DNA of 64,000 bases. Source: Candidatus Hydrogenedentota bacterium (GTDB lineage: Bacteria; Hydrogenedentota; Hydrogenedentia; Hydrogenedentales; JAEUWI01). Location of the stretch: the NCBI GenBank assembly GCA_016182605.1, contig JACPGE010000047.1, forward strand, positions 27,435 through 91,434, in the 5' to 3' direction. Position 1 is the stretch's first letter, and each line of letters opens with the position of its first letter. Position numbers and translations under genes: made by a program. The notes under the pieces are model-generated. The model did not search any database, was not told where the DNA came from, and saw only the letters and a list, made by a program, of their open reading frames with translations. Positions 11,282 through 41,425 of this stretch are shown one piece after another.

Positions 11282-11326
11282 GATGGAGTATACGCGGCCC
11301 CATAACACGGCGGCAGACGTTCAATC

Positions 11327-12412
11327 GTGAAAAAAAAGAAACTCAAAAGCAAGAACCAGCCCGTGCGCACGCGCAATTGGGAAGAGAATCACGAGCATTC
11401 TTTCACCCACGACCGTGCGCGGCACCGCCGTGCCCAGCCCGTGCGCTCGGAAACGGCGGAAGATCTCGATCCGCTTCCCAGCGTATTCGAGCCCAACGGC
11501 GAGGTCTTCTCCCATTCCAAAAAATGGGCCTTCGTCCTGAAAGACGGCGCAGAAATCCTTTGCATCATCGATGAGCGCCTCAAAGAGCAGAATGCAACCC
11601 TGCTGGTGCCAGGCGATCGCGTGCTGGTGGAGTATGAAGAGGGCCAGGCCATTGTGCGCGGGGTCGCGCCGCGTCTCACACGCCTGAGCCGCCCCGCCGG
11701 CGATCATGCGCGCGTGGGCGAACAGATCTTCGCGGCAAACCTCGACGTGCTGCTCATCGTCGCCGCCGCAAAGAACCCCATCTTCCGCCCCGGACTCGTG
11801 GACCGCTACCTTATCGCGGCCGAGCAGGGCGGTGTGGATGCCGTGCTCTGCCTCAACAAGATCGATCTCGTGGAGGAAATGCCGGAGGACCTGCAGCTCT
11901 ACCGCGACCTCGGCATGCCCGTCTTCCCCATCAGTTGCAAGACCGGCGCGGGCATCGACCCCTTGCTGGCACACATCCGCGGCAAGTTGTGCGTTCTCTC
12001 CGGTCACAGTGGCGTGGGCAAATCCACCCTGTTGAACCGGCTCGATCCGGACCTCGATCTGGACACCCAGGAGGTGAGTCAATCCACCCAGCGCGGACGC
12101 CACACCACCACCGCCTCCCGTCTCTACCAGTTGGGCGGCGGCACCCGCATCATCGACACCCCCGGCATCCGCGCACTCGGCCTCTGGCGCGTGGATCCGG
12201 AAGAGGTGGCCTTCTATTTCCCCGAGTTGGCTGCGGCCGCGGCAAACTGCCACTTCCGCAACTGCACCCACACCCACGAGCCCGACTGCGGCGTGAAAGC
12301 CGGCCTCGACGACGGCACCGTCCTGCCCCAGCGCTACGCGTCTTACCTGCGCATCCGCGCGAGCCTGGAATCCGACGAGAACATCACCCCCGGGCGCATG
12401 TTCGCCCTGTAG
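11327..12412 (+). CDS. rsgA: Small ribosomal subunit biogenesis GTPase RsgA
   Basis: Circularly permuted GTPase: NKIDLVEE, GHSGVGKSTLLNRL, DTPGIRALGLW, CHFRNCTHTHEPDCGV zinc motif; GTG start. Confidence 0.95.
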   Translation: MKKKKLKSKNQPVRTRNWEENHEHSFTHDRARHRRAQPVRSETAEDLDPLPSVFEPNGEVFSHSKKWAFVLKDGAEILCIIDERLKEQNATLLVPGDRVLVEYEEGQAIVRGVAPRLTRLSRPAGDHARVGEQIFAANLDVLLIVAAAKNPIFRPGLVDRYLIAAEQGGVDAVLCLNKIDLVEEMPEDLQLYRDLGMPVFPISCKTGAGIDPLLAHIRGKLCVLSGHSGVGKSTLLNRLDPDLDLDTQEVSQSTQRGRHTTTASRLYQLGGGTRIIDTPGIRALGLWRVDPEEVAFYFPELAAAAANCHFRNCTHTHEPDCGVKAGLDDGTVLPQRYASYLRIRASLESDENITPGRMFAL

Positions 12413-12440
12413 GGCGGCGCCCGATTCGCCCGAACTCCCC

Positions 12441-12481
12441 AAAAAAATGCGGCGCGCATCTCCGTTCGAGATACGCGCCGC
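12441..12481 (-). terminator. Rho-independent terminator for the 12496..17049 gene
   Basis: Minus strand GCGGCGCGTATCTC-GAAC-GGAGATGCGCGCCGC followed by ATTTTTTT. Confidence 0.8.
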
Positions 12482-12495
12482 AACCGTTTCTGATT

Positions 12496-15400: not shown

Positions 15401-17049
15401 ATGCCATCCGCAAGAAAAACGCTGCCGTCGAATTCTGCGTTCATGCCCAGATTGCGATTCTCGAGGCTGATCATCTCGCCGGCAGGATTCCCCAAGTCCC
15501 ACGCGAGCCGGTCCATACGGGAGTCGATATGGCAGGACCCGCAAGACGCCTGGCCGAGACCTGAGTTCTTGTGGGTATCATAGAGGTGCTTGCGGCCCAC
15601 CCTGATGGGCTCGGGCGTGGGATCGAAAAGCGGTACCACGTCCACCTCGGAACCAGCCACCGTGCCGCCGCCCTGGGTCTGAAGTGCGACCACCGAAATG
15701 GAGGCGTCGAAGCGGTTGAGGGCGTAGAGCACATTCCGTGCCTCGTCGAGTACAACGCCCGTGGGGCCTTCGCGCAATTCAATCGTGGACGTGGCGCCGA
15801 TGCGATCGCCCTCGGCATCGACCACGATGAGGTTGTTCGAACCCATGCCTGTGATGAAGGCCTGGGTGCCCGCGCTGTTCCAAACGATCCCGCGCGGATC
15901 CCCGATCGACTTGTTCCGGTCATTCTGCGGAATGCGGCGCACCGCATACGTCAGGTGCCCCCGATTCAAATCGACCACGCTCTCCGTGACCAAATCCAGC
16001 GGATCGCCTATGGCCAGGTTCACCCGCGCAAATATGCTGTTCACATTGGGCTCGAAACGCACTTCGTTGATGCCGTCGATACCAACCACCGTCACATCGC
16101 CCGACACCGGATTCACATCGATCGCCATACAGATGTTCATCATATGGTCGATGTAGGTGACCGGTGCGGCCAGATTGTTCGCATTGATCACGGCCACATC
16201 GTGATCGAGCAGCGTCCAGCCCTGGGGGCGCCCCGACAGGCCGGACTGCGGTCCGGAAACGAACTGTGTCCAATCCGTGCCGGTGTCGTCCAGCCATTGG
16301 CCCGCGTCGTTCTGCTTCACGATCATCCCCACCCGGGGCGGTGCGTCATTGTCCGGATTCTCGGCGGGATCGAAGCCATTGCCGTTGTTGTTTGAGGGTG
16401 GATTTGCAGTGCCGTGCGGAGTCTGCGCGTTCCCCACCACATTCGGCGGGAACGAGATGACACTGTTCCCTTCCGAGCCGCCGCCCAGCGCAGTCGAGCG
16501 GTTCCCCGATTCAAATATCGCCGCGTAGACCTTGGAGCCATCGGGGCTCACGGCAAGCGCACGGGGATCTTCTGCATTGATGGCAATATTCGTCGGGTTG
16601 GCCGTGGGATCGCCCGGGCTCACCACCTGAATCAGGTTGGCCTGCGAGCAGGATATAAAGGCGCGCCCCTGGGTCCCGGCGAAGACCACGTCCGCGGGCT
16701 CGTCGGCCGTGCGGACTGTATTGACAATGGCGCCCACGGAAATATCTACGATACTGACCGAATCGGAAATCTGGTTCACGACCCACACTTCCGTATTGGT
16801 CCGGAAACGCGCGGTTACGGGGTCGATGCCCACGGGAATGGATTGCTCCAATTCGGGCGCACCACCGCCAAGAGAGAAGATCTCAACCCGCCCGTCGGCC
16901 GTGTTACAGACCGCCAAATGCGCCCCGTCTGGACTGAGGTCCATCGGATGGACTTGGGGCGTTTCGAAGTTGACAAAATTGTCCTGGGCGAAGGCATGGC
17001 CCAGCGTCAACAAGACGGTAAAAAATAGAACTGCGCATCGCAAGCCCAT
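12496..17049 (-). CDS. Large secreted multidomain protein: beta-propeller/di-heme cytochrome region, GEGEGE linker, PhoPQ-activated-pathogenicity-related-like domain, dockerin/EF-hand-like C-terminus
   Basis: Signal peptide MGLRCAVLFFTVLLTLGHAFAQ; CGSCH and CVTCH heme motifs; (EG)n linker; VSGFMVAGASKRGWTTWTTAVVDPRVRAIAPLVIDLLNL; two LSELLRIIQFFN/LTELLRIIQMFN repeats. Confidence 0.82.
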   Translation of the reverse strand: MGLRCAVLFFTVLLTLGHAFAQDNFVNFETPQVHPMDLSPDGAHLAVCNTADGRVEIFSLGGGAPELEQSIPVGIDPVTARFRTNTEVWVVNQISDSVSIVDISVGAIVNTVRTADEPADVVFAGTQGRAFISCSQANLIQVVSPGDPTANPTNIAINAEDPRALAVSPDGSKVYAAIFESGNRSTALGGGSEGNSVISFPPNVVGNAQTPHGTANPPSNNNGNGFDPAENPDNDAPPRVGMIVKQNDAGQWLDDTGTDWTQFVSGPQSGLSGRPQGWTLLDHDVAVINANNLAAPVTYIDHMMNICMAIDVNPVSGDVTVVGIDGINEVRFEPNVNSIFARVNLAIGDPLDLVTESVVDLNRGHLTYAVRRIPQNDRNKSIGDPRGIVWNSAGTQAFITGMGSNNLIVVDAEGDRIGATSTIELREGPTGVVLDEARNVLYALNRFDASISVVALQTQGGGTVAGSEVDVVPLFDPTPEPIRVGRKHLYDTHKNSGLGQASCGSCHIDSRMDRLAWDLGNPAGEMISLENRNLGMNAEFDGSVFLADGIEPFHPMKGPMSTQTLQGIIGQEPFHWRGDRLGLEEFRGAFMGLQGDDTTLTDQEMNEYKAFLASIHFPPNPFRNLNNSLPTNLPLPGHFITPRFPGAGNQLPNGDAVAGLALYRDHGRRIDQTVVSCVTCHTLPSGNSSNATFNNSTGVYEEIPLGPLGERHLALVSIDGSTNRAIKVAQLRNMYDKVGMDMIHTESRAGFGYLHDGSVDTLERFLSENAFTTNSPQELANLTALMLAFSGSGFGPPSPGLLPFDNPPGVESRDAHAAVGQQVTAGKSEPNNSQLADLKNFVTASPRIELVGFGLMDGRLRGARFVGGSNFQLDAAGGPVTQTTLFTLLDEGAKLTFTVVPAGTATRVALDRDGDTYFNHTEFLANTDPTDPGSFGDPVGEGEGEGEGEGEGEGEGEGEGEGEPVLTALDTYVNTPDNNYRYQLLSTSDGNGYTSRVYSMTSQRWRSANEVNRTLWEHWLLVAVPDSLLFNEAMMFISGGSNGGSAPSGVDPTLGQLAAQTRSIVAEIKMIPNERIKFADETDPRYLANGRTEDELIAYCWDKFMSTGDPLWLPRLPMTKAVVRAMDTVQDVFPAVSGFMVAGASKRGWTTWTTAVVDPRVRAIAPLVIDLLNLVPSFQHHYAAYGFWAPSVEDYVDMGIMDRIDDPAFADLMDIVEPYSYRNRLTMPKFMINSTGDQFFLPDSSQFYFDDLRGEKHVRYVPNTDHGLDQTSTAVEDLTAYYAAFLTKTARPKYDWEILENGEIRVSTTTQPTAVRLWKATNPYARDFRLESIGQAWTSSTLSPQSPGVYVGSVPAPPTGWTAFMVEMEFPNGLVPLPIRFTSGVSVVPDILPFTPPGGAGSGGFCTGGEKSHGPIHMADTNGNMAIDLSELLRIIQFFNVNGFHCQNGTEDGYAPGAPQDAGECSCNAHNVDYVPQNWKVSLTELLRIIQMFNADGYAQCSQSASEDGYCPVFLSK

Positions 17050-20356: not shown

Positions 20357-20549
20357 TCCCCCTACACCTCGTTCGCCAGCATCTGTTCCAGGGTCTGCCG
20401 CTCGCGGATCACCCGGTAGTTCCCCGCCCCGTCCCGCAAGACTTCCGCACACACCGGAAACGCATTGTAGTTCTTTGCCGACATGCCAGAGCAGTACGCG
20501 CCCGCGCCATCAATGATCAGCACGTCCCCAATCTCCGCCTCCGGCAGGC
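20357..20549 (-). pseudogene. Displaced second copy of the lysA 3' end, in frame to its stop
   Basis: About 95% identical to 21257..21449 at a constant 900 bp offset; 9 substitutions, 7 at third codon positions and synonymous. Confidence 0.9.
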
Positions 20550-20557
20550 TTGCGCGA

Positions 20558-20899
20558 TCATGGCGCCTCGGGAAGGGCCAGTCGCTCCAACTGCGCGATC
20601 AGGGATTGAAGCTGGCCGTCCACGACCGCCCAGATCTTCGGCAACTCAATGCGCGGATAATCGTGTACCAATCGGTGTCGAAGTCCGACAATACGATCCC
20701 AGGGGATCTCGGGATGGACGCTGCGATACTCAGGCGATACCCGTGAGGCCGCTTCGCCAATGACCTGTAGTGCGTAACGCGTGGCAAGTTGCCGTTGAGG
20801 ATCCGAAACAAAGCGCTCCAATTCACCATCCCTGTTGAATTCGACCGCGTGCCTGGCATAGATGAGCATGTCCAGCACATGGGCTTCGTCACGCCACAT
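20558..20899 (-). CDS. HEPN domain (HepT-like, DUF86) toxin ribonuclease
   Basis: MWRDEAHVLDMLIYARHAVEFN...VIGEAASRVSPEYRSVHPEIPWDRIVGLRHRLVHDYPRIELPKIW; R-X4-H-X-Y motif (RHRLVHDY). Confidence 0.9.
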   Translation of the reverse strand: MWRDEAHVLDMLIYARHAVEFNRDGELERFVSDPQRQLATRYALQVIGEAASRVSPEYRSVHPEIPWDRIVGLRHRLVHDYPRIELPKIWAVVDGQLQSLIAQLERLALPEAP

Positions 20900-21203
20900 A
20901 GAGGATCTGCGCGGAGTCGAGGATGTGTTTGCGGCGTATGTAATTTTCGCTGCCCTCAACGGCCCGCTTGTCCACCACATCCACTTTCCGCCCCAGCAAA
21001 CCGCCAAGCGCCGCTTCCAAAGCGCCAAACTTGCTCAGCCACGGACCGGCGTCCTCGTCGCGGAACACCACCAGAAAATCGACATCGCTTTCTGGACTGA
21101 AATCATCCCGCGTTACCGACCCAAAAAGGGCCAGTTCAGCAACCCCGAATTCCCGGCAGATTCTGGCGATAGCTTCCGCAGGAATTTCTATGGCCGTACT
21201 CAT
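20889..21203 (-). CDS. MNT-type minimal nucleotidyltransferase antitoxin (MntA-like)
   Basis: LALFGSVTRDDFSPESDVDFLVVF nucleotidyltransferase motif; overlaps the HEPN gene. Confidence 0.9.
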   Translation of the reverse strand: MSTAIEIPAEAIARICREFGVAELALFGSVTRDDFSPESDVDFLVVFRDEDAGPWLSKFGALEAALGGLLGRKVDVVDKRAVEGSENYIRRKHILDSAQILYVA

Positions 21204-21261
21204 GATAGGCAAGCGCTCCTGCCTCAAAGTATATCACACACCGGACTCCACGCCCCGCCCC

Positions 21262-22509
21262 CTACACCTCGTTCGCCAGCATCTGTTCCAGGGTCTGCCG
21301 CTCGCGGATCACCCGGTAGTTCCCCGCCCCGTCCCGCAATACCTCCGCACACACCGGAAACGCATTGTAGTTTTTCGCCGACATGCCAGAGCAGTACGCG
21401 CCCGCGCCATCAATAATCAGCACATCCCCAATCTGCGCCTCCTGCAGACTGCGCGCTTTCGGCGTCTCGGGATCGCCCGGCGCAGGCGTGAGGATGTCCC
21501 CGCTTTCGCAGCAATGCCCCACCACCAGATAATCCACCACCTCGCCCACGCGCCCATCCTGCGTCGCCAGCGCGATCGGGTGCTGCGCGCCATAAAGACT
21601 CGGCCGCAATATCTCCGTCATCCCCGTGTCGGCCTTGATAAACCGGTAGCCTTCCGCACCCGTATGCACCACGTCCATCACCCGGCTCAGAAGCGCCCCG
21701 GCATTCGCCACCAAAAAAGTCCCCGGCTCAATCTCAAGATGCAGTTTGCGCCCGTGCGTCTGCGCGAAGGCCTCGAAACGCGGCACCACCGCCCGCCCTA
21801 TCGCCTGCATGTCCGCCGGCTTCTCTTCGGGCATGCGCGCAATCTTGTAGCCGCCACCCAGGCTCAGACGCGTCACCTCCGGCAGGCGTTCCGCTATTTC
21901 GAGCGCCATGCCCGCGCAGTGCACCCATGTCTCCGGGTCGGACCCGGAACCGATGTGGGTGTGCATGCCGGTGATGCGCAGCCCGTGCTCCGTTGCAAGA
22001 GCCCGCACCTCGGGCAACAACTCATGCCAGATCCCAAAGCTCGAAGAAGGCCCCCCCACATTCGTCCGGTTGCTGTGCCCCGAACCCAGCCCGGGATTGA
22101 TACGCACGGAGACTTCCGCACCCGGAAAAATCGCGCCGTAGGCCCGAAGCTGATTCAGCGAACACGCGTTAAACAGCACGCCCTTTGATACGAGTTCCTG
22201 GAGGTTCTTCGGCAGTTCCTGCGCCGTGATCTGGATGCGATCCGCCGGTATGCCCGCGCGCAGTGCCCGCTCCGCTTCATAGCCGCTGCTCGCGTCCATA
22301 TGCAGCCCGGATTCGTGAAAAAGGCGCAGCACCGCCGCTGTCGGCAGGGCCTTCATCGCATAACGCACCGTCAACCCAAACGCATTGGGGAAAGCAAGGG
22401 CGCTGGAGGCCATCTCCCAGAGACGCGCCGCGTCATAGACAAAGAGGGGAGTGCCATAGGTGGCGGCAAGTTCACGGGCTTCGTCGAGGCTGAGGAACGA
22501 TGGGTGCAT
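21262..22509 (-). CDS. lysA: Diaminopimelate decarboxylase-type PLP fold III enzyme
   Basis: YGTPLFVYDAARLWEMA; VRYAMKALPTAAVLRLF; GMHTHIGSGSD; CCESGDILTP; GAYCSGMSAKNYNAFP. Confidence 0.87.
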   Translation of the reverse strand: MHPSFLSLDEARELAATYGTPLFVYDAARLWEMASSALAFPNAFGLTVRYAMKALPTAAVLRLFHESGLHMDASSGYEAERALRAGIPADRIQITAQELPKNLQELVSKGVLFNACSLNQLRAYGAIFPGAEVSVRINPGLGSGHSNRTNVGGPSSSFGIWHELLPEVRALATEHGLRITGMHTHIGSGSDPETWVHCAGMALEIAERLPEVTRLSLGGGYKIARMPEEKPADMQAIGRAVVPRFEAFAQTHGRKLHLEIEPGTFLVANAGALLSRVMDVVHTGAEGYRFIKADTGMTEILRPSLYGAQHPIALATQDGRVGEVVDYLVVGHCCESGDILTPAPGDPETPKARSLQEAQIGDVLIIDGAGAYCSGMSAKNYNAFPVCAEVLRDGAGNYRVIRERQTLEQMLANEV

Positions 22510-27019: not shown

Positions 27020-27115
27020 TAAATCACGGGCTCCAAACGATGTAGTCAGAACGCAGGTTCACACATATCGTTGCCTCAACTTCAAGTCTGAGAATCACAA
27101 TCAGCCCGTGATTTA
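27020..27115 (+). repeat. TIR-bounded element, family T, copy 1 (96 bp)
   Basis: TAAATCACGGGCT ... AGCCCGTGATTTA perfect 13 bp TIRs, divergent core. Confidence 0.85.
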
Positions 27116-27155
27116 GCCTGCCCACTGAACGCCAGCACCATCGTCACGCTGAGCA

Positions 27156-27251
27156 TAAATCACGGGCTCCAGCCGACGGAGACATAACTCCCACTCACAC
27201 TTGTTGTTGCCCAAACCTTGGATCCGGAAATAACAGACAGCCCGTGATTTA
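27156..27251 (+). repeat. TIR-bounded element, family T, copy 2 (96 bp)
   Basis: Same 13 bp TIRs and same right flank (GCCTGCCCASTGAACGCCAGCA) as copy 1; divergent core. Confidence 0.85.
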
Positions 27252-27515
27252 GCCTGCCCAGTGAACGCCAGCATCGACGTTGCGCTGAGCATATTTCACC
27301 ACGTTGCCAATCCGAATGCGATCCGGAGGTCGCAAAGTGGCTTGGCGTCTTTGCGTGAATCCCCTTCCTGGGATCGCCGAGTTGCACTCGGCCTTGATCC
27401 CCCTCAACTTTGCTTGCTGCCATACCGCGCCAAGCTCACCCCAGTCACGCCGCTCGGCGAGCAGCGTGCTACTATTTAGGCACGCCCCAAGTAGGCCTTC
27501 GCTCGATGAGCGCAG

Positions 27516-27965: not shown

Positions 27966-28658
27966 GTGTCCCACCAAACCGAACTCATCACCGTGCTCGA
28001 CGTTGATACGACGGAGGAGGCCCTCCACATCATCGAGGCAAGCGCGGGCTGTGCCTGGTATAAGATCGGCTCGCAGCTCTTCACCCGCTGCGGCCCCGCC
28101 ATCGTCGAACTCGTCCTCGGCATGGGCCGCCGGGTCATGCTCGACCTCAAATACCACGACATCCCCAATACCGTGGAACACGCCGCGGCAGGCGCCACCG
28201 CCCTCGGCGCGGGCCTCTTCACCCTCCATGCCAGCGGCGGTCGCGCCATGATCGCCGCCGCACGCAAGGCCGTCGAAGGCGCCCCAACCCAGATTCTCGC
28301 AGTCACCATCCTCACCAGCTTCGACGACGCCACCCTCAAGAGCGACATCGGCCTCCACGAGACCGCCGCCCAAGCCGTGCCGCGCCTGGCGAAACTCGCC
28401 GTGGAAAGCGGCGCCCACGGCATCGTCTGTTCCCCCCAGGAAATCACCCTGGTCCGCGCCGCCGTCGGCCCCGGCCCCCTCATCGTCACCCCCGGCATCC
28501 GCCCCGCCTGGTCCACCAAAGACGACCAGGCGCGCATCATGACCCCCGCACAGGCACGCGATGCCGGCGCCTCCATGATTGTCGTCGGACGCCCCATTCT
28601 CAAGCACGCCAATCCCGCCGAAGCAGTGCGGTTGATCCAGGAGGAATTGAATTCATGA
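27966..28658 (+). CDS. pyrF: Orotidine 5'-phosphate decarboxylase
   Basis: VMLDLKYHDIPNTVEHAA; VTPGIRPAWSTKDDQARIMTPAQARDAGASMIVVGRPI; GTG start at 27966. Confidence 0.95.
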   Translation: MSHQTELITVLDVDTTEEALHIIEASAGCAWYKIGSQLFTRCGPAIVELVLGMGRRVMLDLKYHDIPNTVEHAAAGATALGAGLFTLHASGGRAMIAAARKAVEGAPTQILAVTILTSFDDATLKSDIGLHETAAQAVPRLAKLAVESGAHGIVCSPQEITLVRAAVGPGPLIVTPGIRPAWSTKDDQARIMTPAQARDAGASMIVVGRPILKHANPAEAVRLIQEELNS

Positions 28659-29245
28659 GCCAGGATTTTGTCATCGAAGCCTTCAAGGCCTGCGGCGCCC
28701 TGCTGGAAGGGCATTTCATCTACGCCAGCGGACGCCACGGTCGCCACTTCCTCCAGGCCGCACGGGTCCTCCAATTCCCCGTACACACCGAGACCCTCTG
28801 CCGCGCCATGGCGGAAAAATTCCAGGACACGCCCATCGACGTGGTCATTGGGCCCGCCACCGGCGGCATCATCCTCGCCTATGAAACCGCGCGCCACGTG
28901 GGCTGCCGCTCCGCCTTCACCGAGAAGGACGGCGAGGGCGGCTTCGCCCTCAAACGCGGCTTCGCCCTGAAACCGGGCACCCGCGTCCTCGTCGTCGAAG
29001 ACATCGTCACCACCGGCGGCTCGGTAAAGGAAACCATCGCCCACCTGCGCGGCCGCGGCGCGGAAATTGTTGGCGTCAGCGTCCTCATCGACCGCAGCGG
29101 CGGCAAAGCCGAATTCGACTGCGAATACCGGCCCCTCTGCCACTTCACGTTGGAAAGCTGGCCGGCGGACGAGGTCCCCGCCGCATTGCAGGCCATCCCC
29201 GTCACCGAGCCCGACGACCTCATCAACGCGGGGATAGCGCCATGA
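28655..29245 (+). CDS. pyrE: Orotate phosphoribosyltransferase
   Basis: DVVIGPATGGIILAYETAR; RVLVVEDIVTTGGSVKETI PRPP loop; overlaps pyrF by 4 nt. Confidence 0.95.
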   Translation: MSQDFVIEAFKACGALLEGHFIYASGRHGRHFLQAARVLQFPVHTETLCRAMAEKFQDTPIDVVIGPATGGIILAYETARHVGCRSAFTEKDGEGGFALKRGFALKPGTRVLVVEDIVTTGGSVKETIAHLRGRGAEIVGVSVLIDRSGGKAEFDCEYRPLCHFTLESWPADEVPAALQAIPVTEPDDLINAGIAP

Positions 29246-29261
29246 TTCTCAGGACCGCTGC

Positions 29262-32177
29262 TCAATTCTCCAATTGAAATAAAGGAAATCGCGTAATATT
29301 TTCCAGCCCGGGCGTCGTGGGATGCTGTTTGCCATTGGACAGTTCCTTTACCCGATCCATCACGAAGCTGCTCAATTCATGGGCATAAATAATGCCATCC
29401 TTCTTCTGATCCGCCATTTTGTCCCGCAACCCTTCCAGGATTGCGTGCGTAAACACCCCGTGTCCAAGAGACTCTCGCTCCTGGGCCACCTCCCGCCCTG
29501 TGCACGAGGCCATCACCACCACCCCATGCTGCGGCGAGGCCAATTCGCGGAGGGCCTCGGTGTTGTTGACGCGATCGCCCCGGGTCAATACATCAAAATC
29601 CGGCAGGGCGCCGCTGTGGCACGAATCCACAATGACCAGATTCTTCGACGGAAGATTCCCCAATACATCCACTAGATCCCGCCAATTCACCGCCGTACTC
29701 CGCAACTTCTCCGGGTCGCCTTCATACGGCAGTAAATAATAATTGCCGTTCTCATTGTACCCATGGGCCGCCACACTGAGTATCACCACATCCTTCTGCG
29801 TGGCCTGCGATTCCACCCACTCCAGGGCTCCCAGTATCGCATCCCGCGAGGCGTTATCATTCACCAACGGCCGAACCTCTACCTTGCGGAACAGCCGACC
29901 CCGCTGCGTTTCGAACAATTGGGCCAGGGACTCCGCATCGGCATCCGCAAAATTCAGCGACAGAGACGGGTCCGCGTATCGCGAAATCCCGATATTCACC
30001 AGGTACAAATCGGACTGATACGGATCTTCGTGATGATAGGTCACCAGTTTCTTCGCAGAGAGCGCGTTGGCGTCCAGGTGGGCCGCATAGATCTCGATCG
30101 TGTTTTCTCCCGCCTCCAGCGGCGCGTCGAATACCACCACCTTCTGCCGTTCCGCGTCATCGGCACCGAACTGCAAGTCCGCCATGTCCGCCACCACCCG
30201 GCCATTCACAAGCACCTTAATCTCCGTTAGTTTCTCCCCCGCTGTTACCACAGCCCGGATTGGAATGTGTGCCTCCTCAGTTTCTACCCTGAATTGAACC
30301 GGAGCCTCCCACATGATCTCGGGTGGCATCAGCGTCTTGGGTGAAGCAATCATCTCCTTTTCCGGCTCCGCGGCCTGAAGCTCAGCCCACGCACGATCAA
30401 AAGAGTGGAGTTCCGCCGTACGCTGCACCAGTTCGGGCCGGTAGAAGCGCCGCCGGTAGGAATAGGCCGGATAAAACTCCGCAAGCTGATCCCAGCCCCG
30501 GTTGATCTGCCAACCCAAGTACTGCTCGCCCCCCGCCGATGCCGCGTAATAACCTTGTGGCGTCCAGCACACCCACTCGTGATCCTCCGCTACAAAAAGT
30601 GTAGCCAGCAATTCCCTGCTGTCCAGACTCCACAGTCGAACTGTCTGATCATCGCTCGCCGACGCCAAAAGCCGCCCATCCTGCGATACAGACACGGCCC
30701 AGACTATGCCCATGTGTCCCACGAATTCGTGAAGCAACTCGCCCGCGCCGCTGTAAAGTTTGAGACTAAAATCTCTGCCGATCACAACCTGTCCTGATGG
30801 CGTAAAAGCAGAGTACAGAATCCGACCATCCACCCTTGCATCAGCCTCAATCACGACGTCCTCGCCGACCACCAGTTTATACTCCCCTTCCTGGCGAATC
30901 GATACGGGTCCCAAGGTACGCTGCGCACGATGATATTGGGATTCCGGGATCGGACCCGGATCCAGCGCGATGCCAGCGAAATCAAAAGCCTGCTCTATGG
31001 GCCCTCTATTATTTTCATCGGCAAACTTATTCTTCTGGCCAAAACCCACCTTTAGTCCTGGCCCGAATCCGGCAGCCCAAACCGGACGGCCCTTGCCCAC
31101 AAGGCAACGCTGCTCCGTACCGCTTTGCGCGTCCCAGATCCGGATCTCATGGTCATCGCCACCGGCACTGGCCACCCAATCCCCGCTCAACGGAATGGCC
31201 GAATAGACCGTATTGCTGTGGCCCTCGAATCGCGTGACTTCCGCACCACTGGGAACCTCGAAGACCACGGCTGGATTGCCCGAGCCCGCCCCCACCACCC
31301 GGGAGCCGTCTCCCAAGAAGGACACGGTCACTACTTTGCCAGAAAGACGGCCCAATTCCTTGACAAGGTCGCCCTGGCGATCCCAAAGCAAAACGCGCTC
31401 ATCATGACCGCCAGACACGATGTAGTCCCCTTTGGGCGACCACACCACGCACCGCGCCCCTTCGGAGTGACCCTCCATCACCTTCGAGTTTCCAGATTCA
31501 AAACTGCCGTCAACACCCCGCCGCCAGAGCCGGCAACTATGATCATAAGAAGCTGAAACCAGGGCTGACCCGTCGGGCGCAAAGTCCACATCGTAAACAT
31601 CATCCGTGTGCCCCTCTAACGTGGCCACGCAGCGGATGCCTTCCGGTTTTTCTGCGACACCGCCAACATCCCAGATGCGCACGTCGGTGTCTGCAGACCC
31701 GCTGGCGAGATAGCGCCCATCCGCCGACCATGCCAGCGCATTTACGGTATTGGTGTGACCCGACAAGGTGCCCACCTGCCGGTCCGCGGCGATATCGATG
31801 ATCTGTATAGGAGTGTCGCCCTTTGGGGTGCCATAGCCTCCAACCGCTAGAAATCGGCCGTCGGGCGAGAGGGCCGCGGCAAAGAGCTGACCTTCGGGCC
31901 CCGCACCGGCCTGCCCCCGTAGTGTTTTTACCAAAATCCCCGTACCCACATCCCAGAATCGAATCGCCTTGTCGTCGGAAACGGAAATCAGGGTCCGCCC
32001 ATCGGGTGTGCAAGCCAAGTCGTTGACACGCCCCGAATGCCCGTGCGGATCGATCACCAACACCGGGTCCCCTGGCGCCCCGAAGAGATCGCACGCAACG
32101 AGCAACACCAAGCCCCACACTGCCACCGGGCGTCGCTTTCCCATCCAAGTTCCGGCGCCATTCAGTCTGCTCTCCAT
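29262..32177 (-). CDS. WD40-repeat protein with C-terminal caspase-like (C14) peptidase domain, N-terminal signal or anchor
   Basis: Multiple WD40 blades (GHTNTVNALAWSADGRYLASGSADTDVRIWD); VVILSVAAHGYNENGNYYLLPYEGDP (His) and NLVIVDSCHSGALPDF (Cys); hydrophobic N-terminus. Confidence 0.92.
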   Translation of the reverse strand: MESRLNGAGTWMGKRRPVAVWGLVLLVACDLFGAPGDPVLVIDPHGHSGRVNDLACTPDGRTLISVSDDKAIRFWDVGTGILVKTLRGQAGAGPEGQLFAAALSPDGRFLAVGGYGTPKGDTPIQIIDIAADRQVGTLSGHTNTVNALAWSADGRYLASGSADTDVRIWDVGGVAEKPEGIRCVATLEGHTDDVYDVDFAPDGSALVSASYDHSCRLWRRGVDGSFESGNSKVMEGHSEGARCVVWSPKGDYIVSGGHDERVLLWDRQGDLVKELGRLSGKVVTVSFLGDGSRVVGAGSGNPAVVFEVPSGAEVTRFEGHSNTVYSAIPLSGDWVASAGGDDHEIRIWDAQSGTEQRCLVGKGRPVWAAGFGPGLKVGFGQKNKFADENNRGPIEQAFDFAGIALDPGPIPESQYHRAQRTLGPVSIRQEGEYKLVVGEDVVIEADARVDGRILYSAFTPSGQVVIGRDFSLKLYSGAGELLHEFVGHMGIVWAVSVSQDGRLLASASDDQTVRLWSLDSRELLATLFVAEDHEWVCWTPQGYYAASAGGEQYLGWQINRGWDQLAEFYPAYSYRRRFYRPELVQRTAELHSFDRAWAELQAAEPEKEMIASPKTLMPPEIMWEAPVQFRVETEEAHIPIRAVVTAGEKLTEIKVLVNGRVVADMADLQFGADDAERQKVVVFDAPLEAGENTIEIYAAHLDANALSAKKLVTYHHEDPYQSDLYLVNIGISRYADPSLSLNFADADAESLAQLFETQRGRLFRKVEVRPLVNDNASRDAILGALEWVESQATQKDVVILSVAAHGYNENGNYYLLPYEGDPEKLRSTAVNWRDLVDVLGNLPSKNLVIVDSCHSGALPDFDVLTRGDRVNNTEALRELASPQHGVVVMASCTGREVAQERESLGHGVFTHAILEGLRDKMADQKKDGIIYAHELSSFVMDRVKELSNGKQHPTTPGLENITRFPLFQLEN

Positions 32178-32180
32178 AAG

Positions 32181-32663
32181 CTATTCTCCCCTGCCGGCCG
32201 CTGTGGCCTTCTTCGTGCCCTCGGGCTGGGCGAAGTAATAGCCAATCGCACCCGCCACCAGCCACGCAAAAAGCGCCCCGGTATCCTTGATCGTATCCAT
32301 CGCATCGGGAATGTTGTCCACAAACATCAGCAGGAACACCACCATCAGATTCCACAGTAACGAGCCCGCAAAGGCGACCCAGAACGGAACGCTGACCTTC
32401 CCTGTGCCCGCACGCTGCCAGGAACCCCACACGTAGAGCAACATGGCCCCGAGATACGGCGCGTACACCGCATTGAGTTCATAGAGCGACGACTTGAGTG
32501 TATCCAGTTCAATCCAGTGCCACGCGAAAAACAGCAGTAGTACCCCCAGATTGAAGACAAAAAAAGCCCCCCAGAGCGCCAGGAGCACCACCCGTGCCCA
32601 CCAAGGGCTAAATCCCCGCCTACTTGCCATGGAGCCGCTCCAGTTCCCGCACGATCTGACCAT
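32181..32663 (-). CDS. Multi-pass membrane protein, unknown function
   Basis: Several hydrophobic segments; 3 bp upstream of the WD40-caspase gene and overlapping the next gene. Start may be MASRRGFSPW. Confidence 0.75.
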   Translation of the reverse strand: MVRSCGNWSGSMASRRGFSPWWARVVLLALWGAFFVFNLGVLLLFFAWHWIELDTLKSSLYELNAVYAPYLGAMLLYVWGSWQRAGTGKVSVPFWVAFAGSLLWNLMVVFLLMFVDNIPDAMDTIKDTGALFAWLVAGAIGYYFAQPEGTKKATAAGRGE

Positions 32664-33336
32664 TCAACCAGTCCGTCCCCAACTTGTAGTACGTACTTTC
32701 AGGCTCCACGCGCCAGTTCTTCTCCTTCTCGAGCTTATACTCGACCCGCGCCTTCAGTTCGCATTTGCACTTACCCTCCGGATCCGTTTCTTTCGGCATG
32801 GAAACCCAAAAGGCCACCCGTCGGGCTCGGATGGCATCCCCCGGCTGCGTGAAAACTCCATTCGCCACCAGGGGCATGGTGACAAAAATCATGCGCTCGG
32901 TCAGCAGGTCCCACATGGCGAATACTTCGAAACCCGAATTCTTCAACACTGCCTGAAACGTGTCCTGAAGTGTGGTCAGTTCCGAGGCAACGAAACTGTA
33001 GGGGTAGCCATGGGAAAAATCCGACGCATGCAGTAGCCCATTTCCTCGCGTGCCCCCCAGTGTATACGCCTCCGCTTGCACGTTGACCCCTGCCTCCGAC
33101 TCCGCCACAAGGGCAAACCCTTTCAACTCTGGCTGATAATCGACTTCCAGTTTCCCCGTGTTCTCCACCTTGCCCACGTTGGTAATATACACTGACGTGG
33201 CCTCCGGCACGTTCCACTCCAGGGTCACCTTGCCTCCACCATCTCCCACCGGAGTCCCTATGTCGAACTTCTCAATCGCCGGTCCCGCCGGGGCCGCCAA
33301 AATCGAAAAAAACATCAATGCTACAATTGCGTTCAT
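32620..33336 (-). CDS. Secreted hypothetical protein, 238 aa
   Basis: Signal-like N-terminus MNAIVALMFFSILAAPAGPA; translationally coupled to the downstream membrane protein gene. Confidence 0.75.
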   Translation of the reverse strand: MNAIVALMFFSILAAPAGPAIEKFDIGTPVGDGGGKVTLEWNVPEATSVYITNVGKVENTGKLEVDYQPELKGFALVAESEAGVNVQAEAYTLGGTRGNGLLHASDFSHGYPYSFVASELTTLQDTFQAVLKNSGFEVFAMWDLLTERMIFVTMPLVANGVFTQPGDAIRARRVAFWVSMPKETDPEGKCKCELKARVEYKLEKEKNWRVEPESTYYKLGTDWLNGQIVRELERLHGK

Positions 33337-33551
33337 CGAGTTACGCCCTCCAAAGTCGAGATAGCCGGATGCACCGGATCAAGGCAGGAGCTGCAAATTC
33401 CAAACCGTGCGAGCAGCCCTTGGTTTTTCATGCGGAGCGCCCCACATTACACACACTGCCATGCGCTGAGCCACCTTACCAAGTTATCGTGTAAATAACA
33501 AGCGTAATTTAGCCCCAGAGGACTCGGTACTGCCCGCGCACAAACATGGTA

Positions 33552-33653
33552 CTCTGCCACTTCCAGCTCGAAAGCTGGCCGGCGGACGAGGTCCCCGCGG
33601 CATTGCTGGCCATCCCCGTCACCGAGCCCGACGACCTCATCAACGCGGGATAG
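33552..33653 (+). pseudogene. Displaced second copy of the pyrE 3' end, in frame to a TAG stop
   Basis: CTCTGCCACTTC...GAAAGCTGGCCGGCGGACGAGGTCCCCGCGGCATTG...CTCATCAACGCGGGATAG vs 29135..29237; about 94% identical. Confidence 0.9.
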
Positions 33654-33827: not shown

Positions 33828-35168
33828 ATGCACACCCTGATCGCAGCCATTCTCCTCGCACTGGCCGCCACACCCGGCGCCAGGCATCCCGATCCTGCCG
33901 TCCGCCTGGGTGAGCGCCTCTTCGCCGACACGCGCTTCAGCAACTCCAATGGCGACATGGCGACTTCATGCGTCTCCTGCCACATGCCGGCCGACGTGCA
34001 GGGCGACCGCGCCTTCACCCAGTTCCTCTCCCGAAGCTGGCGCCCCTCGCGCACGGAGGACCCCGCGCGCGAAACCCTCCGCAACGCCCCCACTCTCTTC
34101 GACACCGCACAGATGCCCCTCCTCCACCACGACGGGCAGTTCACCTCCCTCGAAGAGCAAACCCGCGAAACCCTGATCGGCCGGAACATGGGCTGGCTTC
34201 CCGAAGAACGCGGCGCAGCGCTCGATCATCTCAAGGCCATCCTGCAAGAAGACGCCGCCTACCGCCAGGATTTCTCCGCGGCAATGCAGGTCGATGTGGA
34301 TGCCGACACCGCGGAAGCCCTCACCGATGCCGCGGCCCGCGCTGTCGCCGCGTTCATGCGCACCCTCGAATCGCCCCGCGATACGCCCTACGACACCTTC
34401 ATCGCCGCAAACGGATTCGACCCCGGGCCCAAACCGGGCGAGCCGCCCTCCAAATACGGCGAACGCATGCTCTGGGCCGTCATCGAACGCATGCAGAACG
34501 GCACGCTCACTCGTCCAGCCGGGTTCTCCGAAGAAGCGATCGCGGGATACAAAGTTTTCCTCCGCACCTCGGGCGCCACACAGGCGGGAAATTGTGTCGC
34601 ATGCCACGTGCCCCCGGCCTTCTCCGATTTTCAGTTCCACAACACCGGCGTGGCCCAGGAGGAATATGAGCGCACCCACGGCGAGAGCACATTTCTCAGC
34701 CTATCCATTCCCGCGGCCGCGGCGGCCCAACGCCCATCGCCCCAATTCATGGCGCGCCCGGGCGCGGACTGCGCGGAGTGCGCCGACCTGGGGTACTGGA
34801 ACTTCGCCCGCGCTTCCGAAGGGGAAGCGATCGACGATACGGCATTGACAAAAGCGATAGGCGCCTTCAAGACGCCCTCCCTGCGCCACCTCGCCTCCAC
34901 CGCACCCTACATGCACAACGGGAAATACCTCACGCTGGAGGCCGTGATCTTGCAAAAAGCGCGCGCGGGAAATAGCGTCCGCGACGGCGGCAGCCGCAAT
35001 CCCGATCCGGAGATCGCCGCCATCCGGCTTGATGAAAACGATGTGCGCAACCTCTTCGCGTTTCTCAATACGCTCAACGCACCCGGCGGACGCCGCGCCA
35101 GCCCCGCACCGCTCGAAGACGATTCCAGCCTCCTGGCAACACAGGCCGCACCCTACCGCGGATATTAA
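33828..35168 (+). CDS. Di-heme cytochrome c peroxidase family protein
   Basis: CVSCH and CVACH motifs, FKTPSLRHLASTAPYMHNGKYLTLEAVI. Confidence 0.9.
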   Translation: MHTLIAAILLALAATPGARHPDPAVRLGERLFADTRFSNSNGDMATSCVSCHMPADVQGDRAFTQFLSRSWRPSRTEDPARETLRNAPTLFDTAQMPLLHHDGQFTSLEEQTRETLIGRNMGWLPEERGAALDHLKAILQEDAAYRQDFSAAMQVDVDADTAEALTDAAARAVAAFMRTLESPRDTPYDTFIAANGFDPGPKPGEPPSKYGERMLWAVIERMQNGTLTRPAGFSEEAIAGYKVFLRTSGATQAGNCVACHVPPAFSDFQFHNTGVAQEEYERTHGESTFLSLSIPAAAAAQRPSPQFMARPGADCAECADLGYWNFARASEGEAIDDTALTKAIGAFKTPSLRHLASTAPYMHNGKYLTLEAVILQKARAGNSVRDGGSRNPDPEIAAIRLDENDVRNLFAFLNTLNAPGGRRASPAPLEDDSSLLATQAAPYRGY

Positions 35169-35196
35169 TTTCGCGCCTTCGCGCCCAATCGCCGCA

Positions 35197-37104
35197 CTAC
35201 ACGGTAAACTGCCCCACCAGCTTCGCCAAGTGCTTCGACAGCCCGGCAAGTTCATCGGCGAGACCGTTGAGGTTGTCCGCGTTTTGCCGCGACTCTTCGG
35301 AAGCGCCACGCACCGTGGAGACGCCTTGATTCGCGCTGGCTATGCTCTGCGCCACCTCGCGCACGTTGCGCGCGATGCCGTTCGCCTCCCGGGCCAGTTC
35401 GCCCATTTTCGTGGTGATGCCCCCCATCCGGGAATCGGCCTGCTGCACATTGCGGGAAACCTGTGCGGTGCCCTGCGCCGTTTGTTGCAGGTTGCGCGAC
35501 ACGTCATCCGTGCCCTTGGCGGCTTCGGCAACATTGCGCGCAATTTCATTCACGGTCACGGTCTGTTCTTCGATGGTTGCGGCAATGGTGGAAAAAGTCT
35601 GATTCAAATGCTGAATCACAGAGACAATCTCGGAGATGGCCGCCATCGCAAGCCCGGTATTGCGCTGCATGTCCTCCACTTGGCCGCGGATGTCCCCCGT
35701 GGCATTGCCCGTCTGCTTGGCGAGTTCCTTCACTTCGCTGGCCACAACGGCAAAGCCCTTGCCCGCCTCCCCGGCGGATGCCGCTTCAATCGTGGCGTTG
35801 AGCGCGAGCAGGTTCGTCTGCTCGGCAATCGCCGTAATGATGTCAATGACCTTGTAGATCTTCTGGGCGGACTGCCCCAAATCGTCCACCACGGAAGCCG
35901 TGGAACCCGCCTTGTCCGACGCGGTGCTGGCCATCGCCGCCGCCTGCGCCGTGCTCCCGGAAACCTCATTGAGCGATGCGGACATTTCCTCCACCGCCAC
36001 GGCGACCGTGTTCACATTCGCCGACAACTGCTCAATGGCCGCCGCGATCGTGCTCACTTGGCCCGACATCTCTTCCATGGCAGCGCTGGCACTGTTGAGA
36101 TTCTGCGAGGCGTCCTGCGCGGCCTGTGCCGCCTCGGTGGAATTCGCACTCACCTGTTCAATGCCCCGGGTAACCGATTCCACACTGGCCGAGGCATCCG
36201 TCATGATGGAACTTGTTTTCTGCGTCTCCTCCGCCATGCCCCGGGTCCGGTCGGCCATGGAATGGGAATTGGTCAGCATGGATTGCGATGCCTTGGAAAG
36301 GGTGCCGGTGCTCTCGGCCACCTGCTGGATAATCTTCTGGAGCTTTTCCAGGAAAAGATTGAGCCAGTGCGCAAGCTGCCCCAGCTCGTCCGCACGATCC
36401 AGTTTAATGCGTACCGTCAGATCGCCGGCGCCCTGGGAGACATCTGCAAGCAGCGCCACCAGCGAGTGAATCGGCACTGTGATACTCCGGGTAATAAAAA
36501 ACGACAGGAGCGCCAGCACCACGAACGCGACGGCAAGCAGGGCAAGCAGATTGCGGCGGAACGCGGCGACGGCGCCCAATTGCTGTTCCTGAGCGGCATC
36601 CATGCTCGCGGCCAAGCTGTCGCTCACCGCTCCCATCTTGTCTTCCAATTCCCCGAATACGGTGAGGAATTCCCCCAAGTTCGCCTTTGCGGCCACGGGA
36701 TCCGCGAAACCGGCCTCCACATGTTTCGCCGCCGATTCCATGTACGCATTCAGATCGGGCAATACATCGCTCAATGCTTTCTCGACTTCGGGGCTAAGTT
36801 CCAGCTTCTCGTTTTCGGCCACGCTAAGACGGAAATTTTCGGCATGGTCCTTCAATTCCGCGCTCACCTCATCCCGCTGCGCCCGATCGGCCGCCAACAG
36901 GGATGCGAGGACGTCCGCCCGAATCGCGTCGTGCATCATATCGCTTTCCATATGATGCTGAAGAGCGGTTGCCGTGCGTGTCACGGCCGCCATGCCGCTC
37001 CCGATATTTTTACTGCCGAAGTAGCCCGCCAGCCCAATGGCAACAAGAAACAGCAGACTGACGCCACTCAGAACGTATAGCTTCGATCCGATAGTCCATT
37101 TCAT
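35197..37104 (-). CDS. Methyl-accepting chemotaxis protein
   Basis: [36 protein letters not shown]-like region, hairpin [40 protein letters not shown]. Confidence 0.95.
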
Positions 37105-37180
37105 TTTGCGATCCCTTCCAGGCTCATTCCAGTATGTGCACATTAGCCTCAACCGCACGCGTCAGCACGGAACCCGGACT

Positions 37181-38632
37181 CTAAAATGAAATCTGTGTCC
37201 GGAACCCCGCCACAAAGGTCTCCTTGTTACCCGTGCCTCCGGGATTAACGATGTATTGCAGATCCGGCTTGATATTGAACCAGGGCGCGATCTGTGCCAG
37301 GTAGTAGAACTCAATCGCCGTCTCGTGGCGTTTCTCGAAATCGGCCTCGCTGCTCAGCAGAACATGGAAGACCCCCAAACCGAGTATGTCGGCATCGCGG
37401 CCGGGCAGCGCGCCGATCCATTGCACGCCCAAACCATGGTACTGCTCCGCTTCCAGCACATCGTCATCGGACCAGCCAAACTGCGCAAAGAGGCCGATAC
37501 CCTGCTGGTCGTCATCGTCCTCCTGAATCTCCTTGTAAAGTTCCTGATCCCACGTCGCATAAAAACCGTAACTGTGGTCCTTCGTGGAATTCCGAGGGAA
37601 TATACGTCCGCTCAATTCCTCCACAATGCTCCCGCCAACGAAGCCCGTCAACTCCGTCAGAAACGTGCTCAACAACCCGGTCGTACGCACGGAATCCGTG
37701 AGCCCAAGCCAACCCGCAGGATCGGGGCCTGCTTCGGCGTCCTCCGGCGCAAGTTTCTCGAAGCGATCGCCGTTCCACCAGAACCCCAGGCGCAACGTGC
37801 CCGGGTGTCCCGCAAGGGTGTAATAGAAGGCTGGCTCCACCATCACCATCGGGCCATAGAGATGGTCGAGCGTGCTGCCCAACGATTGGCCTCCGTCAGG
37901 CCGGCCCTGATAGACCCCCACGTTCATGGAAAACCACTCCACCGGCTGCATGCCGAGCACCACCCCCCAATCCTGATCGGGATAGGTGACCAACGGTATG
38001 GTCGGACTGAAACCGGGCGAAGATGCGCTGAACACGCCGCCGTAATCCACGAAGGCAAAGTCGGCGTTGCCTTCCAACTTGCCCAGCTTCAACGTGAGTT
38101 TCCCGTCGAGAAAGATGTGCTGATACCAGAACTCGGAAATCTGAAAGTAGTCGTCCGCATCGATATTCGACAGGGTCTGGAAATCGAGCACGTGCTTTTC
38201 CGTGAGACTGTCCCCATGCTGCCCCTGCAAGTAAACGAAAAAGGCGCCGTCCTCCCACCAGCCCGCCGCGCCCGTATCCACCGTAAAGGTAAGGCTCAGG
38301 TCCGCACGATAGCGGGAACCGGTCTGCTCTCCCCCATGGAGATTCCAGAGTTGTTCCGCAGTGTATACCGCTTCGAAGCTGTAGCCCCGCTCGGCCAGCC
38401 GCGTGCGCAATCCGCCCCAATCGCCCGTTAGATAGTCACGCTCGCGCAAGCCGCCTGCCCCCGACGCCACCGGTACGAGGAGAAGTAGAAGTAGAAGTAG
38501 AAGTAGAAGCAGGAACTGCAGCACCCGGGCTTCCCGCCGGCGCAGCGGCCACAAGATGACTTCCAAGAGAGTATGTTGTGGCATGGACATCTCCTCTGAG
38601 GTATCGAAATACCCAATGGTGCAAGAAAGCAT
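37181..38632 (-). CDS. OprB-family carbohydrate-selective porin
   Basis: LTGDWGGLRTRLAERGYSFEAVYTAEQLWNLHGG; IEFYYLAQIAPWFNIKPDLQYIVNPGGTGN; terminal RTQISF. Confidence 0.88.
   Translation of the reverse strand: MLSCTIGYFDTSEEMSMPQHTLLEVILWPLRRREARVLQFLLLLLLLLLLLLVPVASGAGGLRERDYLTGDWGGLRTRLAERGYSFEAVYTAEQLWNLHGGEQTGSRYRADLSLTFTVDTGAAGWWEDGAFFVYLQGQHGDSLTEKHVLDFQTLSNIDADDYFQISEFWYQHIFLDGKLTLKLGKLEGNADFAFVDYGGVFSASSPGFSPTIPLVTYPDQDWGVVLGMQPVEWFSMNVGVYQGRPDGGQSLGSTLDHLYGPMVMVEPAFYYTLAGHPGTLRLGFWWNGDRFEKLAPEDAEAGPDPAGWLGLTDSVRTTGLLSTFLTELTGFVGGSIVEELSGRIFPRNSTKDHSYGFYATWDQELYKEIQEDDDDQQGIGLFAQFGWSDDDVLEAEQYHGLGVQWIGALPGRDADILGLGVFHVLLSSEADFEKRHETAIEFYYLAQIAPWFNIKPDLQYIVNPGGTGNKETFVAGFRTQISF
38482..38510. 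repeat. Hexanucleotide microsatellite inside the porin signal peptide
   Basis: (AGAAGT)n on the + strand, translated on minus as a Leu/Leu run (LLLLLLLLLLLL). Confidence 0.8.
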
Positions 38633-39446: not shown

Positions 39447-39630
39447 AGGCTCCGGGTGAGTGAACGGAAAGTTGAAGCACGATTTTTTGAAGCAGACGCG
39501 CTGGCGGCGTCAAGTCAACTCAGGTTGGCCCGCATATTTCACCACTTCAAGCTTTCTTACAACACGCTCCTCTTGAGAGGTGGTGAAATATGCTCAGCGT
39601 GACGATGGTGCTGGCGTTCACTGGGCAGGC

Positions 39631-39725
39631 TAAATCACGGGCTGTCTGGCGATACCGCTGTGCATGTTGTGACCATTGTGGGTCTAAGAAGGGTTATGGA
39701 ACAAACGCATGGAGCCCGTGATTTA
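39631..39725 (-). repeat. TIR-bounded element, family T, copy 3 (95 bp), inverted
   Basis: TAAATCACGGGCT/AGCCCGTGATTTA TIRs; on minus the flanks CCCGGATAAATC and GCCTGCCCAGTGAACGCCAGCACCATCGTCACGCTGAGCATATTTCACCAC match copies 1/2. Confidence 0.85.
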
Positions 39726-40777: not shown

Positions 40778-40851
40778 TTGCAAAGCACATCAGCAACCAA
40801 CCGTTTTAGTGATCGGCGGCGATAGCAATCGCCGCAACCCACAGAAAGTAG

Positions 40852-41023
40852 AATCGGCGCCCGGTACCCCCCCAACCCGATGAGCTCTGCTCAGGCCGCC
40901 CCGCCCGGACCTCTCTCCTTCCGGCCGGCAGCCCCTCTCCAGAGCGGCGTTCTAGCCCAGCGACCGCTGAGAGGTCAACTACGTGTCACAGCCCAATAGC
41001 CAGCCCAATACCGGGCGCCGATT
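40852..41023. repeat. TIR-bounded element, family G, copy 2 (172 bp)
   Basis: AATCGGCGCCCGG ... CCGGGCGCCGATT (paired change in both ends). Confidence 0.85.
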
Positions 41024-41071
41024 CTGCAAATCTTCCGGCGACAGTGCTCGCCAAAACAATTTTAATAGTGG

Positions 41072-41242
41072 AACCGGCGTCCGGTACCCCCCAACCCGAT
41101 GAGCTCTGCTCAGGCCGCCCCGCCCGGACCTCTCTCCTTCCGGCCGGCAGCCCCCCTCCAGAGCGGCGTTCTAGCCCAGCGACCGCTGAGGGGTCAATTA
41201 CGTGTCACAGCCCAACAGCCAGCCCAAAGCCGGGCGCCGGTT
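41072..41242. repeat. TIR-bounded element, family G, copy 3 (171 bp)
   Basis: AACCGGCGTCCGG ... CCGGGCGCCGGTT; interior nearly identical to copy 2. Confidence 0.85.
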
Positions 41243-41425
41243 CCACAATGCAATTCCACCCGGCATCCCCCCTCCCCTTCCGCGCCATTTGCGTACATTG
41301 ACAGTTCCCTACAATCTGCGTAAGATCGGCACATAAGACTACGGGCGGCGGGGCTGCAATTTGGGGAATCTCCACGGCGCTGTTACGCTAATGCGCCATT
41401 CAGTCCTGTGCCAATGGGGAGCTTG

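What the first reader, a model, noticed from the sequence alone, without database searches (positions are those of the whole stretch)
29135..33653. WD40-caspase operon flanked by a duplicated, in-frame pyrE 3' end: second case of the same architecture
The last roughly 100 bp of pyrE (29135..29237) recur at 33552..33653 with about 6 substitutions. The frame is open to a stop (...DDLINAG*), while the intact gene ends ...DDLINAGIAP* because of one extra G at the junction. The intervening 4.3 kb holds one three-gene minus-strand operon (secreted protein, membrane protein, WD40-caspase). The layout matches the lysA/HEPN-MNT locus 8 kb away: accessory module, biosynthetic gene 3' end, diverged tail duplicate, no integrase. 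Two independent instances suggest a general cassette-acquisition route, not chance.
Basis: partly seen in the sequence, partly recalled or inferred. Interest (0 to 1): 0.85.

Follow-up and report, generated by a model that had tools for sequence, protein, structure and literature searches.

The report
Foreign operons flanked by gene-tail copies
In this uncultured bacterium (phylum Hydrogenedentota), small foreign operons such as toxin-antitoxin pairs and a caspase-like operon repeatedly sit right behind ordinary genes, with a slightly different spare copy of the gene's last 60-215 bases on the far side: a scar showing how such operons get in, of a kind known mainly from restriction-modification genes in Helicobacter.

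Summary
The last ~100 bp of pyrE (29135-29237) recur at 33552-33653 (6 substitutions, 1 indel) and flank one three-gene WD40-caspase operon; the lysA/HEPN-MNT locus has the same layout. It is not a pair of coincidences. A scan of 2.35 Mb of the genome gave nine gene 3'-end copies downstream of an intact gene, against one 5'-end copy and one internal (Rhs-like) copy. The cargo between includes HEPN-MNT (twice), a ParE toxin pair, DUF3800, an SDH-type protease, a 537-aa orphan and the caspase operon; all 13 cargo genes measured have GC below the genome median. None encodes a recombinase. Relatives have uninterrupted pyrE and lysA sites. Misassembly is unlikely: the assembly k-mer appears to be 141, longer than any exact match between copies. 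The best reading is displacement of a gene's 3' end by homology-driven additive integration of donor DNA carrying gene tail plus foreign operon, matching 'insertion with long target duplication' (R-M genes, H. pylori) and Rhs C-terminal displacement. New here: many non-R-M cargoes at housekeeping genes in one genome, with boundaries often 0-4 nt from the stop codon. The mechanism is inferred, not shown. None was found in ~0.9 Mb of relatives.

The parts
28655..29245 (+). pyrE, intact; ends ...DDLINAGIAP*
   Evidence: PF00156 3e-18; alignment with relatives
29135..29237 (+). pyrE 3' tail, first copy (T1)
   Evidence: repeat D7
29262..32177 (-). WD40-caspase gene (971 aa; probable lipoprotein signal after an internal ATG); cargo
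   Evidence: PF00400 and PF00656 2.8e-17; PADLOC caspase 5e-6; signal read by eye
32181..32588 (-). membrane protein gene, cargo (longest ORF to 32663)
   Evidence: ORF and gene call; no Pfam match
32620..33336 (-). secreted protein gene, first of the cargo operon; absent from 67 other genomes of the phylum searched
33552..33653 (+). pyrE 3' tail, second, truncated copy (T2); ends exactly at an in-frame TAG
21262..22509 (-). lysA, intact (second instance)
   Evidence: best PDB match 7jpj diaminopimelate decarboxylase 5e-139
21258..21472 (-). lysA 3' tail, copy inside the intact gene
20889..21227 (-). MNT antitoxin-type nucleotidyltransferase gene, cargo
   Evidence: PF01909 5.5e-13
20558..21028 (-). 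HEPN (HepT-like) toxin gene, cargo (likely start near 20899); its last codons lie in lysA-like sequence
   Evidence: PF01934 8e-21
20358..20573 (-). lysA 3' tail, truncated copy; homology ends 4 nt after the stop

Best explanation
Each locus is the scar of one horizontal acquisition. Donor DNA carried the 3' end of a shared gene followed by a foreign operon. The shared tail paired with the resident gene and recombined there by homology. The other end joined inside the same resident gene, either because the donor DNA was circular (single crossover) or by an illegitimate joint as in homology-facilitated illegitimate recombination. The gene received a donor-type 3' end and stayed whole, the operon came to lie behind it, and the displaced resident tail was left on the far side. 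Shown: the repeat structure, its recurrence, its strong bias to gene 3' ends, foreign cargo, empty sites in relatives, absence of recombinase genes in the cargo. Inferred: donor origin of the tail, the joining step, natural transformation as the route.
For: Nine 3'-tail copies downstream of intact genes in 2.35 Mb / 1702 called genes (pyrE, lysA, ceramidase-like, PfkB kinase, an unassigned 205-aa gene, surE, Gfo/Idh, YhdP/AsmA, GntR), 1 five-prime copy, 1 internal. Two rows first counted otherwise were reassigned by inspection: surE is a 3' case on the other strand, and the C13 row pair is one tandem event. Cargo: HEPN-MNT x2, ParE pair, DUF3800, SDH protease, WD40-caspase operon, orphan ORFs; all 13 measured cargo genes are below median GC. 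Target genes, tail lengths (62-215 nt) and inner edges all differ. In lysA the T1/T2 differences are mostly synonymous (7 of 9 changed codons), as expected for two functional alleles. At the lysA inner joint the end of the HEPN gene (TCCCGAGGCGCC) resembles lysA (TCCCGAGACGCC). Uninterrupted sites: L193 pyrE-HAD, L190 pyrE-glycosidase, L205 ABC permease converging on lysA. ComEC and DprA homologues are present, but both are widespread in bacteria. In E. coli, single crossover of a circularised molecule gave 109-950 bp gene-end duplications (PMC3240628); Rhs tips are displaced in the same geometry (PMC2935791).
Against: No donor genome was found, so T1 as the imported copy is unproven; in lysA the family alignment does not tell which copy is ancestral. 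Pooled over loci, 14 of 33 changed codons are synonymous, against 0.24-0.29 expected under neutrality (P 0.01-0.07), so the allele argument rests mainly on lysA. Abrupt ends at the stop codon in four loci are not required by this model. None was found in ~0.9 Mb of relatives. Microhomology at the other inner joints was not demonstrated.
Confidence: 0.55

Rival explanations
1. Site-specific integration: recombinase-less integrative elements that carry a replacement 3' end for their target gene are inserted by an integrase supplied in trans (or since lost), as prophage e14 does at icd.
For: The geometry is that of e14/icdC: the same scan run on E. coli K-12 recovers a 165-nt, 92.7% identical icd tail ending at the stop. 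An element must rebuild its target gene, which would explain ends at stop codon or terminator. Five tyrosine recombinase matches exist elsewhere in the genome.
Against: Nine unrelated target genes with no common core at the inner edges and tails of 62-215 nt; no recombinase in any cargo; cargo types unrelated; a 5'-end mirror case exists (C29).
Confidence: 0.15
2. Insertion of a foreign operon with a long duplication of the target made in situ (staggered break, template switch or break-induced replication); the two tails were identical at first and the spare one is decaying.
For: Pooled differences are only weakly biased to synonymous changes; long, variable (~100 bp) target duplications are described for R-M systems (PMC3874152); some copies are almost identical (C24: 66 nt exact).
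Against: lysA differences are mostly synonymous; the pyrE and surE copies keep their frame; lengths vary; selection for an intact gene is still needed to explain the 3' bias.
Confidence: 0.2
3. Assembly artefact: two strain alleles laid end to end.
For: Metagenome-type draft of 130 contigs; ~5-7% divergence looks allelic; one locus (C13) is a tandem copy of a larger segment.
Against: Contig ends share exact 141-mers, the mark of a de Bruijn graph at k=141, while the copies share at most 26-104 exact bases; no N runs at these loci (only three fully masked contigs read N); contamination 1.4%; the artefact would not favour gene 3' ends or foreign cargo.
Confidence: 0.05
4. Chance or ordinary repeats: paralogues or dispersed repeats that happen to end in genes.
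For: The genome has dispersed ~211-bp repeats, which account for the C30 and probably the C1 hits; the C29 GIY-YIG match (77%, 8.6 kb away) and perhaps C43 (79%, low complexity) are weak.
Against: E-values 1e-8 to 1e-87 within one contig; the pyrE tail has only two places in the genome; nine of eleven copies are anchored at a 3' end (P about 1e-10 if 5% were expected).
Confidence: 0.05

Closest known systems
Insertion with long target duplication (Nobusato et al. 2000, R-M genes in Helicobacter pylori; cited in PMC1643837, PMC3874152)
   Same: Accessory gene unit without its own recombinase, flanked by a direct repeat of about 100 bp of the target; variable length; addictive cargo.
   Different: Here the cargo is not R-M (HEPN-MNT, ParE pair, DUF3800, SDH protease, WD40-caspase), the repeats are 3' ends of housekeeping genes that stay intact, there are many in one genome, and the copies differ by up to about 20%.
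Rhs/CDI C-terminal displacement and V. cholerae T6SS immunity arrays (PMC2935791, PMC5361080)
   Same: Intact gene with a new 3' end, new cargo behind it, old 3' end left downstream; homology on one side; circular intermediate or homology-facilitated illegitimate recombination proposed. This genome has an Rhs-like example too (C42).
   Different: Those displace a variable toxin tip under selection; here the conserved tail of a metabolic gene is replaced by an equivalent tail.
Prophage e14 at icd in E. coli K-12
   Same: Alternative gene 3' end of 165 nt, 92.7% identical, ending at the stop codon.
   Different: e14 carries intE/xisE and uses one specific target; these loci carry no recombinase and use nine different genes.
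Gene-end duplication by single crossover of a circularised incoming molecule in E. coli (PMC3240628)
   Same: Duplication of 109-950 bp of the shared gene end flanking the inserted DNA.
   Different: Laboratory conjugation of a suicide plasmid, not natural cassettes.

Membership tests
Insertion with long target duplication | Accessory unit flanked by a long (order of 100 bp), variable direct repeat of the target | tested here: met
   62-215 nt repeats at nine loci
Insertion with long target duplication | Empty site with a single target copy in a relative | tested here: met
   L190, L193 (pyrE) and L205 (lysA) have one tail and no cargo; these are other genera of the phylum, not sister strains
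Insertion with long target duplication | Cargo is a restriction-modification unit | tested here: not met
   No R-M cargo recognised; toxin-antitoxin pairs, caspase operon and others
Site-specific integrative element (e14 type) | Recombinase gene in the element | tested here: not met
   None in any cargo
Site-specific integrative element (e14 type) | Common core sequence at the crossover | tested here: not met
   Inner edges unrelated across loci
Homology-facilitated illegitimate recombination / additive crossover | Homology on one side of the insert, in the anchor gene | tested here: met
   Tail homology
Homology-facilitated illegitimate recombination / additive crossover | 3-10 bp microhomology at the illegitimate joint | tested here: inconclusive
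   Suggestive at lysA/HEPN; other joints ambiguous
Homology-facilitated illegitimate recombination / additive crossover | Natural competence of the host | tested here: inconclusive
   ComEC and DprA homologues present, but both are widespread; competence itself untested
Integron gene cassette | attC-like recombination site shared between cassettes | tested here: inconclusive
   Inner edges share no sequence; attC sites are defined mostly by structure, and no structural or integron-integrase search was made

The most novel reading that the evidence does not exclude
A dedicated, so far undescribed integration process in this lineage places single foreign operons immediately after the stop codon or terminator of housekeeping genes, copying 60-215 bp of the gene end to the far side.
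Probability: 0.12. Interest if true: 0.85.

Novelty: new variant of a known kind. Interest (0 to 1): 0.5.

Why it matters
How toxin-antitoxin and similar small operons move without transposases or integrases is a standing question. Here one genome preserves several such events with readable scars, so the entry points, tail lengths and cargo can be compared, and a simple scan (gene 3' end copied downstream of an intact gene) can look for them in any genome. It also warns that partial gene copies next to accessory operons can be insertion footprints rather than decayed paralogues.

Tried and rejected
Donor search for the cargo: the secreted protein has no relative in 67 other genomes of the phylum. 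Which tail is ancestral: relatives too distant to decide. Codon-position test of decay versus allelic divergence: clear only for lysA. Common core motif at inner edges: none seen (by eye). C30 hits rejected as a dispersed repeat, C1 73 as probably one, C29 GIY-YIG as a likely paralogue, C19 as reciprocal hits between genes on opposite strands. The C24 '5-prime' hit turned out to be the 3' end of surE on the other strand. Most ParE loci and one HepT locus of this genome show no flanking tail copy, so the scar is not universal for such cargo. Furuta et al. 2010 is not held.

Full report
Observation. The pyrE 3' end at 29135-29237 recurs at 33552-33653 with 6 substitutions and one indel, and nowhere else in the 6.76-Mb genome. 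The copy ends exactly at an in-frame TAG (...DDLINAG*). The intact gene has an extra G, loses that stop and ends ...DDLINAGIAP*; relatives mostly end near DDL(I/V). The 4.3 kb between contains three minus-strand genes, from a secreted protein (32620-33336) through a membrane protein to a WD40-caspase (PF00400, PF00656). By eye the caspase carries His (AAHGYN) and Cys (DSCHSG) motifs and, from an internal ATG, a lipoprotein-like signal, so it is probably exported. lysA at 21262-22509 has the same layout around HEPN-MNT.

Scan. Stretches totalling 2.35 Mb of the genome were taken, genes called with a codon model (1702), and each gene compared with its own neighbourhood. Copies outside genes, on the same strand and not dispersed repeats: nine at the 3' end, downstream of the intact gene (pyrE; lysA; ceramidase-like C2:131590; PfkB kinase C18:46571; 205-aa gene C24:36059; surE C24:121431; Gfo/Idh C35:10127; YhdP/AsmA C43:47046; GntR C13:8236), one at the 5' end, upstream (C29:62640), and one internal (Rhs-like C42:7823). 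surE and Rhs-like are named by eye from the sequence. The raw tally for copies outside genes reads ten 3'-downstream, three 3'-upstream, two 5'-upstream and three internal rows. surE was first listed as a 5' case and was reassigned after reading the other strand; C13 gives two rows for one tandem event; a 77% GIY-YIG match 8.6 kb away was dropped; the three 3'-upstream rows are dispersed or likely repeats; two internal rows (C19) are reciprocal hits between opposite-strand genes. C43 (79%, low-complexity tail) is the weakest of the nine. These reassignments were made after seeing the hits, so the 3' bias should be retested blind. The same scan recovers the e14/icdC tail in E. coli K-12. It finds none in 0.4 Mb of two relatives, 0.51 Mb of Hydrogenedentota contigs around pyrE or 0.71 Mb of other phyla. 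The contrast, 9 of 1702 against 0 of 1298 genes, has Fisher P 0.007; against Hydrogenedentota alone P 0.07. These comparison sets are small and fragmented, so rarity elsewhere is only indicated.

Cargo. HEPN-MNT at lysA and at YhdP, a ParE toxin with a small partner at Gfo/Idh, DUF3800 at the kinase, an SDH/ClpP-like protease, a 537-aa orphan of 48% GC at surE, a small membrane-like ORF at C2, and the caspase operon. All 13 cargo genes measured are below the genome's median GC. No cargo gene is a recombinase. C13 differs: its cargo is a diverged tandem copy of the neighbouring ABC genes.

Boundaries. The homology stops 0 to 4 nt after the stop codon in pyrE, C2, C24 and lysA, about 45 nt after it in surE, and 59 nt after it, at the end of an intrinsic-terminator-like hairpin and T run, at Gfo/Idh. 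In C18 and C43 the detectable homology stops before the stop codon. Inner edges share no motif seen by eye. At lysA the end of the HEPN gene runs into lysA-like sequence, which suggests an illegitimate joint rather than a cassette border.

Relatives. The core order lysA-radA-disA-pyrK-pyrD-pyrF-pyrE is conserved. In same-family contigs pyrE is followed directly by the HAD gene (L193) or a glycosidase (L190), and in L205 the ABC permease converges directly on lysA: sites without cargo or second tail. In the window the HAD gene lies 10.5 kb from pyrE, so other DNA (MauG, chemoreceptor and porin genes) also lies in that gap. The cargo's secreted protein is absent from 67 other genomes of the phylum.

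Artefact. Contig ends share exact 141-mers, as in de Bruijn assembly at k=141, while the paired copies share at most 26-104 exact bases (10 in C43), so the graph should separate them. Reads were not available.

Mechanism. The preferred model is displacement of the gene's 3' end by additive, homology-driven integration of donor DNA. Its experimental parallel is the 109-950 bp gene-end duplication produced by single crossover of a circularised molecule (PMC3240628); its evolutionary parallels are Rhs tip displacement (PMC2935791), T6SS immunity arrays (PMC5361080) and insertion with long target duplication (PMC1643837, PMC3874152). lysA, where 7 of 9 changed codons are synonymous, speaks for two functional alleles; the pooled data speak only weakly. 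Insertion at a 3' end leaves the gene and its promoter intact, which would explain the 3' bias by selection; events whose far joint falls outside the gene would leave no scar, so the count is a lower bound. In-situ target duplication and an integrase acting in trans remain open.

Noticed in passing
window 27102-27302 and 39580-39648 (inverted); also C10, C24 and C30 of the genome: Dispersed repeats; a family of about 211-214 bp occurs several times in the genome at 93-98% identity, and the window has related-looking short inverted copies. Not identified.
   Followed up: partly
window 40847-41243: A 178-bp unit present twice, 220 bp apart (93.8%), upstream of a very long ORF; no gene tail involved.
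   Followed up: partly
L112 (C42) 13749-13825 and 15707-15783: Internal fragment of a 2447-aa Rhs-like gene copied behind a 176-aa gene: looks like classic C-terminal displacement in the same genome.
   Followed up: partly
L046 (C13) 8236-13909: Tandem duplication of an ABC-transporter gene pair (95% and 80% identical) starting inside a GntR regulator tail.
   Followed up: partly
window 29262-32177: The WD40-caspase appears to be an exported lipoprotein, which does not fit a cytoplasmic abortive-infection role.
   Followed up: no
window 33828-38632: MauG-type peroxidase, chemoreceptor and porin genes lie between pyrE and the HAD gene that directly follows pyrE in a same-family relative (L193).
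   Followed up: partly
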